Shown piece after piece: positions 20,887-34,870 of a stretch of 43,770 nt of DNA. The stretch is from contig PDQG01000009.1 in the NCBI GenBank assembly GCA_002747745.1, positions 1 through 43,770 on the forward strand. Reading direction: 5' to 3'. The DNA comes from a bacterium DOLZORAL124_38_8 (GTDB lineage Bacteria > Patescibacteriota > Gracilibacteria > UBA4473). Under the pieces are notes generated by a model. It made no database searches. It saw only the letters and a list, made by a program, of their open reading frames with translations, and had not been told where the DNA came from. A program made the translations under genes and the position numbers. Every line of letters begins with the position of its first letter. Position 1 is the first letter of the stretch.

Positions 20887-22467
20887 CTATTCTCCACTCT
20901 TACCGTAGTTTTTCAGCACCCGTGCCGAAGGATCATCAACTGCACATCCTTCCCACTCTTTGTTTGGCATCCAAAAATCCGGTATCAAACCAGCGTGTCC
21001 TGAAAAATGTTTTTCAAAAATTTCTCGATACAACAAACTTTCTTTCGTAAACGGAGTACCATGCTGGTACTTTTGCGCTTGAATTTGCCAATCATCACCA
21101 TAAAAATCTTCGGCAAAGGCTTTAATAATATCAACCATCGAGTGTCCAACCGCATCAGAAAAGGCTGCTTTTTCTCGCCATAAAATAGAGTCGGGCAAGT
21201 GTCCTTGCGTGGCAAAACTCTTTCGTAATAAATGTTTTCCAATACCCGTCGTGTTCATTTTTAATTGGACGGGCACACTCATCACAAAATCAACAAACGC
21301 TTTATCGCTGAATGGCACACGGGCTTCTAACCCAACCCCAGCAATACATCGATCCGCCCGCAGCACATCATACAAATACAACTCTCGCACACGTTTTTGC
21401 GCTTCTCGTTGAAATTCATCTTCCGACGGAGCGAAATCAGTATATTTATAACCAAACAATTCATCACTCACCTCTCCAGTTAAAACCACTTTGATATCCG
21501 TTTTTTCCGAAATATATTTAACCAACAAATACATTCCTATTGAGGCTCGAATAGTAGTAATATCCCAAGTTTCCAGCAGATAAATCAAATCTTCCAAAGC
21601 GTTAAAAATATCCGATTGCGAAAATATCACTTCCGTATGTTCCGTTCCTAAATGATCCGCCACCATGCGAGCATATTTCGTATCAATCGCATCGCCTTCG
21701 ATTCCAATGGCAAAGGTTCGAATCGGCTTTGCTGAAATTCTAGACGCAATCGAACACACTAAACTTGAATCAAGTCCCCCACTCAACAAAAACCCTACGG
21801 GAACATCAGCCTCTAACCGTTTTTTAACCCCAGCAGATAATAAATCGTGTATTTTTTGTTCGGCCGTAGATGGCAAAATTTTCTCATCAGTTTTAACGGT
21901 TGAGTAATCGTGATAAGTATAAAATTGACCATCGATAAAAATTTTTCCCGGGGGAAATGGAAGCACTTTTTTACAAACTTCCGTTAACACTTTGGCTTCA
22001 CTCGCAAAATAAAAATCTCCTGATTCGTCTTGCGCATAAAACAAAGGACGAATTCCTAATGCATCTCGAGCCACCACCCAAGATGATTTATGTTTTAAGG
22101 CAAACGCAAACTCTCCATCGAGTTTTTGCACTGCTTCAATCTTGTCTTCCGATTGCGTCATTAACGGCAAAATCACTTCGCAATCAGACTCAGACTGAAA
22201 CTCGTACGACGAGAATTGCTGACGAAGTAATTGATGTTCGTATATTTCTCCGTTGCACACCAGCGTGGCTATTTCGGTCGCAAATGGTTGGTCTCCTTTG
22301 GGAGTGGTATCAATAATTCGCAATCGATGAAACCCAATCCAACCACCCGTTGACAGTGTTTTGGTAATCGTTTTATCTGGCCCACGATGTTTTATTTTCG
22401 CAAACGACAGACGCAATTTTGTTTGTATTTTAGTATCGGTTCCAGTATAGGCAGTAAATCCACACAT
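20887..22467 (-). CDS. asnB: Asparagine synthetase B (glutamine-hydrolysing)
   Basis: Makes asparagine from aspartate, ATP and glutamine. The 526-aa protein starts at the ATG at 22467 so that Cys2 (MCGFTAY) becomes the N-terminal nucleophile after Met removal; an upstream in-frame ATG at 22524 lies within a terminator loop and is rejected. Domain 1 is the class II glutamine amidotransferase (HRGPD 27-31, CNGEIYEH 71-78, ESDCEV). Domain 2 is the ATP-PPase synthetase with PP-loop LLSGGLDSS (227-235), FAIGIEG and LTGEVSDELFGYKY. About 540-600 aa is usual, so this is compact. It is preceded by a long leader carrying two Asn-codon attenuators. Stop is TAG. Confidence 0.96.
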   Translation of the reverse strand: MCGFTAYTGTDTKIQTKLRLSFAKIKHRGPDKTITKTLSTGGWIGFHRLRIIDTTPKGDQPFATEIATLVCNGEIYEHQLLRQQFSSYEFQSESDCEVILPLMTQSEDKIEAVQKLDGEFAFALKHKSSWVVARDALGIRPLFYAQDESGDFYFASEAKVLTEVCKKVLPFPPGKIFIDGQFYTYHDYSTVKTDEKILPSTAEQKIHDLLSAGVKKRLEADVPVGFLLSGGLDSSLVCSIASRISAKPIRTFAIGIEGDAIDTKYARMVADHLGTEHTEVIFSQSDIFNALEDLIYLLETWDITTIRASIGMYLLVKYISEKTDIKVVLTGEVSDELFGYKYTDFAPSEDEFQREAQKRVRELYLYDVLRADRCIAGVGLEARVPFSDKAFVDFVMSVPVQLKMNTTGIGKHLLRKSFATQGHLPDSILWREKAAFSDAVGHSMVDIIKAFAEDFYGDDWQIQAQKYQHGTPFTKESLLYREIFEKHFSGHAGLIPDFWMPNKEWEGCAVDDPSARVLKNYGKSGE

Positions 22468-22497: not shown

Positions 22498-22533
22498 AAA
22501 AAAATCTCCACGCAGTTCATTCACTCGTAGAGA
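22498..22533 (-). terminator. asnB leader terminator 2 (regulated)
   Basis: On the minus strand TCTCTACG (22533-22526), a 13-nt loop and CGTGGAGA (22512-22505), then seven T (22504-22498). All 8 bp pair, one as G-U. It lies 31 nt before the asnB ATG. Its 5' arm is also the 3' arm of antiterminator 2, so the two cannot coexist. Confidence 0.78.
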
Positions 22534-22566
22534 AAAAAGAATACAGAAAATTCTTTCGCCCCTACG
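22526..22566 (-). promoter_or_regulatory. asnB antiterminator 2
   Basis: Minus-strand bases 22566-22550 (CGTAGGGGCGAAAGAAT) pair with 22542-22526 in 16 of 17 positions (three G-U, one mismatch), leaving a 7-nt loop. The hairpin consumes the 5' arm of terminator 2. The stop codon of leader peptide 2 (22564-22562) lies inside its 5' arm. Confidence 0.75.
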
Positions 22567-22612
22567 GAGGAGAATTATTATTTGCCATATTGTTATTAAA
22601 CCAAGTCATCAT
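22562..22612 (-). CDS. asnB leader peptide 2, Asn-rich
   Basis: A 16-codon ORF reading MMTWFNNNMANNNSPP, stop TAG. Six of the 16 residues are Asn (codons AAT and AAC), in two triplets. The peptide itself needs no function; translation speed through the Asn codons is what matters. If Asn-tRNA is scarce the ribosome stalls about 20-30 nt before the antiterminator arm and leaves it free; if Asn is plentiful it reaches the TAG, covers that arm and the terminator forms. It lies between terminator 1 and terminator 2, so it acts only on transcripts that have passed the first checkpoint. Confidence 0.78.
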   Translation of the reverse strand: MMTWFNNNMANNNSPP

Positions 22613-22627
22613 TTTATTTTTGTCATT

Positions 22628-22657
22628 AAAAAAACACTCTCGTGGCGAGAGTGTTTT
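22628..22657 (-). terminator. asnB leader terminator 1 (regulated)
   Basis: On the minus strand AAAACACTCTCG-CCA-CGAGAGTGTTTT, a perfect 12-bp stem with a 3-nt loop, and seven T in a row (22634-22628). It lies 25 nt after the stop of leader peptide 1. Its 5' arm is shared with antiterminator 1. Confidence 0.88.
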
Positions 22658-22698
22658 ACATTTTTATATTTTTTAATAATACTAAAACATCTCTCGCC
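22644..22698 (-). promoter_or_regulatory. asnB antiterminator 1
   Basis: GGCGAGAG (22698-22691), one bulged A and TGTTTTA (22689-22683) pair perfectly with TAAAACACTCTCGCC (22658-22644): 15 bp with a single bulge. The 5' arm overlaps the last codons and the TAG stop (22684-22682) of leader peptide 1; the 3' arm is the 5' arm of terminator 1. Confidence 0.85.
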
Positions 22699-22744
22699 TC
22701 AGCCAGTTATTGTTATTCGTATTATTATTTTTAAATTGTTTCAT
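22682..22744 (-). CDS. asnB leader peptide 1, Asn-rich
   Basis: A 20-codon ORF reading MKQFKNNNTNNNNWLRREMF, stop TAG. Seven of eight consecutive residues (6-13) are Asn, coded by AAT and AAC. It starts 11 nt after a TATAGG -10 element, so it is read almost from the 5' end of the transcript, and no Shine-Dalgarno is present. Stalling at codons 6-13 would leave 22698-22683 free to build the antiterminator; completion would put the ribosome on that segment. This is the standard logic of amino-acid attenuators (as in trp, his, leu), here for asparagine and in front of asparagine synthetase. Confidence 0.85.
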   Translation of the reverse strand: MKQFKNNNTNNNNWLRREMF

Positions 22745-22755
22745 TTGCTTAAAAC

Positions 22756-22782
22756 CCTATACAAAAATTATTTATAAGTCAA
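22756..22782 (-). promoter_or_regulatory. Promoter of the asnB leader
   Basis: On the minus strand TTGACT (22782-22777) followed by TATAGG (22761-22756, 15-nt spacer) or TAGGGT (17-nt spacer). It begins 9 nt after the stop of the preceding gene and places the transcript start 3-7 nt before the leader peptide 1 ATG. Confidence 0.6.
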
Positions 22783-22790
22783 TTTTTTTC

Positions 22791-23234
22791 TTACACCAAC
22801 GGCAAACCTTCGCCTTCACCGCCAAATCTAGTTTCAAAATATTCCATTACCATACCAATAAACATTCCGTCTAGTACACTCCAAAAAGGAGATTCCAATC
22901 CCGTCCAAGCAACAAACGATGTTTGCATAACTGGCAAAAATGAATCGTACGCCAATAACACCAATATTAGCATACAAAATCCACCAATTACCGCCCCCCG
23001 AAACCACCATGGTTGGGCAAATTTAAATAATGGATGTTTGGTAACTTGCCCCATAAATCCTGTGAGAGCCCCCATTAACATAAATAATAACAACACACCC
23101 CACACAAAATTATTCCGCACCGAAATTTCTAATCCGGCATACGCAAAAAATGCTAAAAATAACCCTGCAAATACCAGACCAATAATTTTACCAATGGCCA
23201 CTCGTTTTGTAACCGAAAATTTGCTGTTATTCAT
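22791..23234 (-). CDS. Four-helix membrane protein, unknown function
   Basis: A 147-aa protein with about four transmembrane segments (roughly residues 12-34, 43-63, 78-98 and 115-133) and an acidic, Gly-rich C-terminal tail (RFGGEGEGLPLV). It starts 13 nt after htpX and is probably cotranscribed with it, which hints at a role in membrane quality control or simply at a shared promoter. I see no motif naming a family. No terminator follows directly; transcripts reading through would enter the asnB leader and be subject to its attenuators. Stop is TAA. Confidence 0.72.
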   Translation of the reverse strand: MNNSKFSVTKRVAIGKIIGLVFAGLFLAFFAYAGLEISVRNNFVWGVLLLFMLMGALTGFMGQVTKHPLFKFAQPWWFRGAVIGGFCMLILVLLAYDSFLPVMQTSFVAWTGLESPFWSVLDGMFIGMVMEYFETRFGGEGEGLPLV

Positions 23235-34814: not shown

Positions 34815-34846
34815 AAAAAAACACTCGCCCGTGGCGAGTGTTTTTT
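34815..34846. terminator. Bidirectional terminator, carB C-half / unknown gene
   Basis: AAAACACTCGCC-CGT-GGCGAGTGTTTT, a perfect 12-bp stem, with T-tracts on both strands between convergent genes. The stem resembles that of asnB leader terminator 1. Confidence 0.92.
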
Positions 34847-34870
34847 AGTAAACAAAAGCAGAAAGATATC

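What the first reader, a model, noticed from the sequence alone, without database searches (positions are those of the whole stretch)
22644..22744. Asn-codon leader peptide with mutually exclusive antiterminator/terminator upstream of asnB (module 1)
Seen: a 20-codon ORF (MKQFKNNNTNNNNWLRREMF) with seven Asn codons in eight positions starts a few bases after a promoter. Its end and stop overlap the 5' arm of a 15-bp pairing (22698-22683 with 22658-22644, one bulge), whose 3' arm is also the 5' arm of a perfect 12-bp terminator with a T-tract (22657-22628). The downstream gene is asparagine synthetase. Known: in trp/his/leu attenuators, stalling at codons for the regulated amino acid favours the antiterminator. 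Inference: asnB is induced by Asn-tRNA shortage. I know of no described Asn attenuator in a CPR-like bacterium.
Basis: partly seen in the sequence, partly recalled or inferred. Interest (0 to 1): 0.95.

Follow-up and report, generated by a model that had tools for sequence, protein, structure and literature searches.

The report
Tandem asparagine-codon attenuators before asnB
In a tiny-genome candidate-phylum bacterium (Gracilibacteria kin), the asparagine-making gene asnB sits behind two consecutive mini-genes packed with asparagine codons, each followed by RNA that can fold into either of two mutually exclusive hairpins, and the gene that charges the asparagine tRNA sits behind a third; together they likely let ribosomes starved of asparagine switch these genes on, a known kind of control for which I found no asparagine version in print.

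Summary
It is half of a tandem: a second Asn mini-ORF, MMTWFNNNMANNNSPP (22612-22562), has its own antiterminator (22565-22527) and terminator (22532-22498), then asnB at ATG 22467. A third module, MRHNNLNSNNNNYSVE, precedes asnS elsewhere in the genome. In the 384 kb scanned (42% of the genome), exactly three mini-ORFs with at least 5 Asn in 8 residues are followed by a terminator-like hairpin, and all three precede asnB or asnS. The one other class genome (353 searched) that matches this AsnB at E<=1e-30, with only 39% identity, has the same kind of leader. Folding with a ribosome footprint predicts antitermination on the Asn codons and termination at the stop codon, as for E. coli trpL and hisL in the same model; module 1 ranks first of 671 mini-ORF/terminator pairs. 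Best reading: trp-type ribosome-mediated attenuation reading Asn-tRNA, serial at asnB and shared with asnS. There are no transcript data and covariation could not be tested. Known kind; Asn specificity, same-signal tandem and phylum appear new.

The parts
22756..22782 (-). possible promoter, TTGACT (22782-22777) and TATAGG (22761-22756), spacer 15
   Evidence: for the letters; NOT listed by the consensus scan; inference only
22682..22744 (-). leader ORF 1, MKQFKNNNTNNNNWLRREMF*, 7 Asn codons
   Evidence: Asn pattern found at two places in the genome
22719..22727 (-). segment 1 (TAATAATAC, inside the Asn codons): predicted to pair with the next part when no ribosome covers it
   Evidence: lowest-energy fold of the free RNA
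22674..22682 (-). partner of segment 1 (GTATTATTA, starts at the last base of the stop codon)
   Evidence: lowest-energy fold of the free RNA
22683..22698 (-). antiterminator 1, 5' arm (GGCGAGAGATGTTTTA), overlaps the end of ORF 1
22644..22658 (-). antiterminator 1, 3' arm (TAAAACACTCTCGCC), shared with terminator 1
22628..22657 (-). terminator 1: 12-bp hairpin 22657-22631 and T-tract to 22628
22562..22612 (-). leader ORF 2, MMTWFNNNMANNNSPP*, 6 Asn codons
   Evidence: Asn pattern found at two places in the genome
22550..22565 (-). antiterminator 2, 5' arm (GTAGGGGCGAAAGAAT), contains the stop codon of ORF 2
   Evidence: duplex -17.7 kcal/mol
22527..22542 (-). antiterminator 2, 3' arm (ATTCTTTTTTCTCTAC), overlaps terminator 2
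22498..22532 (-). terminator 2: hairpin 22532-22506, then A and seven T to 22498
20887..22467 (-). asnB, glutamine-hydrolysing asparagine synthetase, 526 aa, start ATG 22467
   Evidence: Pfam GATase_7 and Asn_synthase; relatives align from residue 1

Best explanation
Two asparagine-codon leader ORFs in series upstream of asnB, each with antiterminator and terminator sequences that exclude one another, are predicted to act as trp-type ribosome-mediated transcription attenuators that read the charging of the asparagine tRNA. When charged tRNA-Asn is plentiful, the ribosome would run to the stop codon inside or at the end of the antiterminator 5' arm, cover that arm, and let the terminator form. 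When it is scarce, the ribosome would stall on the Asn run with its front edge before or near the start of the arm, the antiterminator would form first, and RNA polymerase would read on. Module 1 is predicted to default to termination without a ribosome (its Asn codons pair with the region after the stop codon), while module 2 is predicted to default to read-through. Two serial gates would multiply repression when Asn is ample. A third module upstream of asnS would put synthesis and charging of Asn under one sensor. Shown: the ORFs, the complementary arms and their overlap, the genes downstream, their rarity, a like leader in G028. Inferred: transcription start, translation of the ORFs, stalling, termination, physiology.
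For: Sequence and pairings. Ribosome-footprint folding: pairing of the terminator 5' arm with upstream sequence before the 3' arm is made falls from Asn codons to stop codon: module 1 1.00-0.99 to 0.04, module 2 0.89-0.48 to 0.13, asnS 0.97-0.57 to 0.28, G028 0.84 to 0.09; E. coli trpL (Trp codons) 0.62 to 0.01. A version that takes the highest value over the codons 4-12 before the stop gives drops of 0.95, 0.68, 0.70, 0.76, and 0.62 for trpL and 0.51 for hisL; shuffles reaching the observed drop: 0, 7, 14, 0, 17 and 4 of 500 each. In a ranking of all 671 mini-ORF/terminator pairs of the genome sample by this drop the three Asn leaders are ranks 1, 19 and 21. Mini-ORFs with at least 5 Asn in 8 followed by a terminator-like hairpin in 384 kb: exactly three, before asnB, asnB and asnS. 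Relative: G028, the only other match at E<=1e-30 among 353 class genomes, with a distant asnB (39% identity; long branch apart), carries MTQKNLILSNNNNNLPTP* with the same layout. In the four modules the antiterminator 5' arm starts about 7-12 nt after the first base of the last Asn codon (my count). No Rfam family reaches its gathering score in the leader.
Against: No RNA, ribosome or expression data. No covariation test: no close relative with asnB is held. Of 671 mini-ORF/terminator pairs, 33 score a drop of 0.65 or more (28 of them with terminator probability of at least 0.8 at the stop), so modules 2 and asnS are persuasive only together with their Asn runs and genes. For G028 the equilibrium fold favours the terminator at every ribosome position, so only kinetic folding would make it switch; the same is true of E. 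coli trpL in this model. Modules 2 and asnS fold mainly as antiterminators without a ribosome, so they would repress only if translated. At the last Asn codon of each asnB module the equilibrium fold already favours termination (0.92, 0.93). The asnS terminator is weak (7 bp, -7.3 kcal/mol). The promoter is unproven, and the consensus terminator scan listed hairpin 1 only on the + strand and hairpin 2 not at all. The leader ORFs lack a Shine-Dalgarno site, though only 1 of 31 long ORFs of the window has one. Of 29 other asnS loci of the class none has a comparable leader next to the gene.
Confidence: 0.86

Rival explanations
1. Hairpin 1 is simply the terminator of the upstream gene (stop at 22791), hairpin 2 a second such terminator, and the Asn mini-ORFs are chance in AT-rich DNA.
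For: An upstream gene ends 46 nt before ORF 1 on the same strand; terminator-like hairpins are common (619 in 384 kb, both strands).
Against: The double-Asn-run pattern occurs only at these two places in 909,522 bases; 3 of 3 Asn mini-ORF/terminator pairs in 384 kb precede Asn genes; module 1 is rank 1 of 671 for the switch; G028 repeats it.
Confidence: 0.06
2. The leader ORFs act on translation, or read general translation speed, and not by Asn-tRNA-specific transcription attenuation.
For: Modules 2 and asnS fold mainly as antiterminators without a ribosome, so any change in leader translation, not only Asn lack, would change read-through.
Against: The Asn runs and the asnB/asnS genes match one amino acid; the hairpins end in T-tracts; in all four modules the antiterminator arm begins near the ribosome front edge at the last Asn codon (my count).
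Confidence: 0.07
3. The Asn-rich peptides are functional small proteins, and the hairpins are incidental.
For: Nothing specific; some leader peptides act in trans (peTrpL, PMC7298713, start of the abstract seen in a search listing).
Against: By eye the four peptides share little but Asn runs; their codons overlap the pairing arms.
Confidence: 0.01

Closest known systems
trp/his-type leader-peptide attenuators of Proteobacteria (E. coli trpL, hisL)
   Same: short ORF rich in codons for the product amino acid, stop codon ahead of or in the antiterminator arm, exclusive antiterminator and terminator, predicted switch under the same model
   Different: Asn codons; asnB and asnS; two modules in series; Patescibacteria; Shine-Dalgarno sites rare (1 of 31 long ORFs)
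Tandem attenuators of Salmonella mgtCBR (mgtM, mgtP; PMC3641672, abstract and outline read)
   Same: two leader ORFs in series in one leader mRNA; mgtP responds to proline-charged tRNA
   Different: there the two ORFs sense different signals (ATP and proline), which the abstract calls a singular example; here both would sense the same amino acid
Leader-peptide attenuators of aminoacyl-tRNA synthetase genes: hisS relatives in bacilli (PMC2965389, passages read), trpS and leuS in Streptomyces (PMC1262725, passages read), E. coli pheST (recalled)
   Same: a synthetase gene preceded by an ORF with codons of its own amino acid, like asnS here
   Different: other amino acids and phyla
T-box leaders of Asn-related genes in Firmicutes (recalled)
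   Same: same physiological signal, uncharged tRNA
   Different: direct tRNA binding, no leader ORF; Rfam finds no T-box here, nor in the 18 of 80 named asnB loci given

Membership tests
trp-type leader-peptide (ribosome-mediated) transcription attenuator | short leader ORF enriched in codons of the amino acid that the downstream gene makes or charges | tested here: met
   7 of 20 and 6 of 16 codons Asn, asnB downstream; rarity in the genome
trp-type leader-peptide (ribosome-mediated) transcription attenuator | intrinsic terminator between leader ORF and structural gene | tested here: met
   12-bp and 10-bp hairpins, each with a run of seven T; found by my own hairpin scan. The consensus scan listed hairpin 1 on the + strand only and hairpin 2 not at all, for module 1 probably because it takes four T into the stem
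trp-type leader-peptide (ribosome-mediated) transcription attenuator | antiterminator that shares an arm with the terminator and overlaps the end of the ORF | tested here: met
   shuffles 0 of 500 and 7 of 500
trp-type leader-peptide (ribosome-mediated) transcription attenuator | ribosome on regulatory codons favours antiterminator, at the stop codon favours terminator | tested here: met
   in silico only; controls trpL and hisL
trp-type leader-peptide (ribosome-mediated) transcription attenuator | conserved or covarying in relatives | tested here: inconclusive
   like leader in G028; none in G433 or in 79 named distant loci; no covariation set available
trp-type leader-peptide (ribosome-mediated) transcription attenuator | amino-acid-dependent termination of transcription | not testable with these tools
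   needs RNA or in vitro work
T-box riboswitch | match to the Rfam T-box model | tested here: not met
   no T-box match in the leader, at gathering score or up to E = 10

The most novel reading that the evidence does not exclude
A candidate-phylum bacterium with a 0.9-Mb genome has built its own asparagine regulon out of ribosome-mediated attenuators: two same-signal gates in series on an asnB of foreign origin plus one on asnS, arisen separately from the like device in front of a distant asnB in a UGA-recoded cousin, so that this lineage repeatedly invents leader-peptide attenuation.
Probability: 0.5. Interest if true: 0.82.

Novelty: new variant of a known kind. Interest (0 to 1): 0.74.

Why it matters
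Ribosome-mediated attenuation needs tight transcription-translation coupling. Finding it built three times in one Gracilibacteria-related genome would show that such coupling and specific amino acid sensing exist in the Patescibacteria, which are hard to grow. It would add asparagine to the amino acids read by leader peptides, give a serial same-signal design that bears on leak and dynamic range, and offer a case of attenuators evolving anew on transferred genes. It can be tested in a laboratory E. coli.

Tried and rejected

T-box or other Rfam element: none at gathering score in the leader; 11 sub-threshold matches up to E = 10 (best E 0.16, Phe_leader, 23.4 bits against a cut-off of 55) taken as chance.

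Attenuator inherited with asnB from its donor group: 0 of 79 named asnB loci (Bacteroidota, Bacillota, Pasteurellaceae, Bdellovibrionota and others) have a mini-ORF with at least 5 Asn in 8 within 400 b upstream (one of the 80, L060, left out for short upstream). Other Asn_synthase (PF00733) genes of the class: 130 of 353 genomes have one over the cut-off; none of the 30 loci fetched has such a mini-ORF on its upstream side.

asnS elsewhere: of 29 other class asnS loci (30 fetched with G000, of 37 genomes that matched) none has a comparable leader next to the gene. L175 has an NNNN mini-ORF about 1280 b upstream, L182 and L186 an NNNLN mini-ORF that overlaps the gene start; I did not count these.

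Loss of tRNA-dependent amidation as the reason for asnB: GatB is missing from G000, the only one of the 50 at least 90% complete genomes without it (two less complete ones lack it too), but no glnS over the cut-off is found either (0 of 60 genomes), which would leave no known route to Gln-tRNA; an assembly gap is more likely, so I do not build on it.

Errors corrected: read minus-strand loci from the genome search on the wrong strand; redone. One search used a wrong hairpin slice for hisL; redone. The DNA alignment of the four modules used badly chosen stretches for asnS and G028, aligned poorly and is not used.

Full report
WHAT IS THERE. Read on the minus strand, the 323 bases between the upstream gene (stop at 22791) and asnB (ATG 22467) hold: TTGACT and TATAGG, a weak promoter candidate; ORF 1 (22744-22682), MKQFKNNNTNNNNWLRREMF; antiterminator 1 (22698-22683 with 22658-22644, -22.7 kcal/mol as a duplex); terminator 1 (22657-22628); ORF 2 (22612-22562), MMTWFNNNMANNNSPP; antiterminator 2 (22565-22550 with 22542-22527, -17.7 kcal/mol); terminator 2 (22532-22498). 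The downstream protein has the GATase_7 and Asn_synthase domains. The ORF list starts asnB at GTG 22524, inside terminator 2; relatives align from residue 1 at ATG 22467.

CHANCE. The double Asn run is found at two places in the whole genome, the two leader ORFs, and the reversed control pattern nowhere. A looser run, AAYAAYAAYAAY, gives 17 matches against 10 for the control; 5 of the 17 lie in frame in a mini-ORF, two of these being ORF 1 and the asnS leader. In 384 kb (window plus 17 stretches) there are 9707 mini-ORFs of 8-40 codons, 6 with at least 5 Asn in 8 residues. Three of the 6 are followed by a terminator-like hairpin (619 hairpins, 671 ORF/hairpin pairs): ORF 1, ORF 2 and a leader before asnS. 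About 58% of the genome was not scanned this way.

THE THIRD MODULE. asnS (contig C4, minus strand, ATG at 126659; TIGR00457 over its cut-off) is preceded, 157 bases upstream, by MRHNNLNSNNNNYSVE*, a 15-pair antiterminator (-19.5 kcal/mol, two G-U pairs) and a weak 7-bp terminator (-7.3 kcal/mol) that runs into seven T. None of 29 other asnS loci of the class, 7 of them from the same family, has a comparable leader next to the gene.

THE RELATIVE. Two of 353 class genomes match this AsnB at E<=1e-30, G000 and G028; a search of 379 genomes drawn across the phylum added one, G433, at E<=1e-60. G028, whose asnB has 14 in-frame UGA, has MTQKNLILSNNNNNLPTP*, an antiterminator (-13.2 kcal/mol) that contains the stop codon, and a strong terminator. 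G433 has none. In a tree of 39 proteins G000 groups with environmental proteins (P0002, then P0003 and P0004), while G028 and G433 sit on very long branches whose place is unsure; the best named relatives of the G000 protein are Bacteroidales at 60%. So the two asnB genes were probably acquired separately and the device arose or was rebuilt twice (inference).

THE SWITCH. I folded the RNA from the front edge of a ribosome (12 nt from the first base of the A-site codon) to the end of the hairpin, for each codon. For module 1 the terminator probability is 0.94 without a ribosome, 0.00-0.33 with codons 6-12 in the A site, 0.92 at the last Asn codon and 0.94 at the stop. Module 2: 0.17, 0.08-0.52, 0.93 and 0.99. 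asnS: 0.03 without a ribosome, 0.00-0.18 on its Asn codons, 0.95 at the stop. G028: 0.72-0.96 at every position. Before the 3' arm of the terminator exists, which is the state that matters for a race, all four modules switch from Asn codons to stop: 1.00-0.99 to 0.04, 0.89-0.48 to 0.13, 0.97-0.57 to 0.28, 0.84 to 0.09; E. coli trpL gives 0.62 to 0.01 and, at equilibrium, 0.92-0.95 terminator throughout, like G028. Shuffles reaching the observed drop: 0, 7, 14 and 0 of 500; trpL 17, hisL 4. Against all 671 pairs the three leaders of this genome rank 1, 19 and 21; 33 of 671 reach a drop of 0.65. These are predictions at 37 C with a fixed footprint.

MECHANISM. trp-type attenuation reading Asn-tRNA charging (inferred). 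Module 1 has a stem between its Asn codons and the region after its stop codon and is predicted to terminate when untranslated; modules 2 and asnS are predicted to read through when untranslated. In series the gates would multiply.

KNOWN OR NEW. Leader-peptide attenuators are known in Proteobacteria, Actinobacteria (PMC1262725, passages) and bacilli (PMC2965389, passages); a word search of both texts found no asparagine attenuator. Searches: (asparagine, asnB, Patescibacteria or asparaginyl-tRNA synthetase with leader-peptide terms) found no paper; two searches found 4 each, none an Asn attenuator by title and abstract start; searches had looser terms, found 88 and 375 and listed 20 and 15, none an Asn attenuator or one in this phylum by title and abstract start. 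The library is open-licence PubMed Central only. Tandem attenuators are known from mgtCBR with two different signals (PMC3641672, abstract).

TAXON. EF-Ts relatives whose names bear a taxon are Candidatus Gracilibacteria and Peregrinibacteria; the genome has 909,522 bases and is 98.94% complete.

Noticed in passing
G000 contig C4, 126816-126660, minus strand (L141, L163): A third Asn-codon leader with antiterminator and terminator precedes asnS of the same genome.
   Followed up: yes
G000 whole genome: No GatB match (the only one of the 50 at least 90% complete genomes) and no glnS over cut-off, which would leave no known route to Gln-tRNA; an assembly gap or an unusual arrangement.
   Followed up: partly
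L002, mini-ORF starting about 100 b before the asnB ATG: G028 has a further mini-ORF with four Ile codons in a row (MTIIIIQYISYDSLNCL) between the terminator and asnB.
   Followed up: no
window 34815-34847: A hairpin about 85% identical to terminator 1 lies between two convergent genes.
   Followed up: no
window, ORFs of at least 180 codons: Only 1 of 31 has a Shine-Dalgarno-like 4-mer upstream of its first ATG (starts not curated). Leader ORF 1 and those of asnS and G028 start about 7-11 nt after a TATA-like hexamer (by eye), as if nearly leaderless.
   Followed up: partly
G028 and other genomes of the class: Genes with in-frame UGA occur in several families of the class, while in the window 3 of 34 long frames end in UGA.
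   Followed up: no
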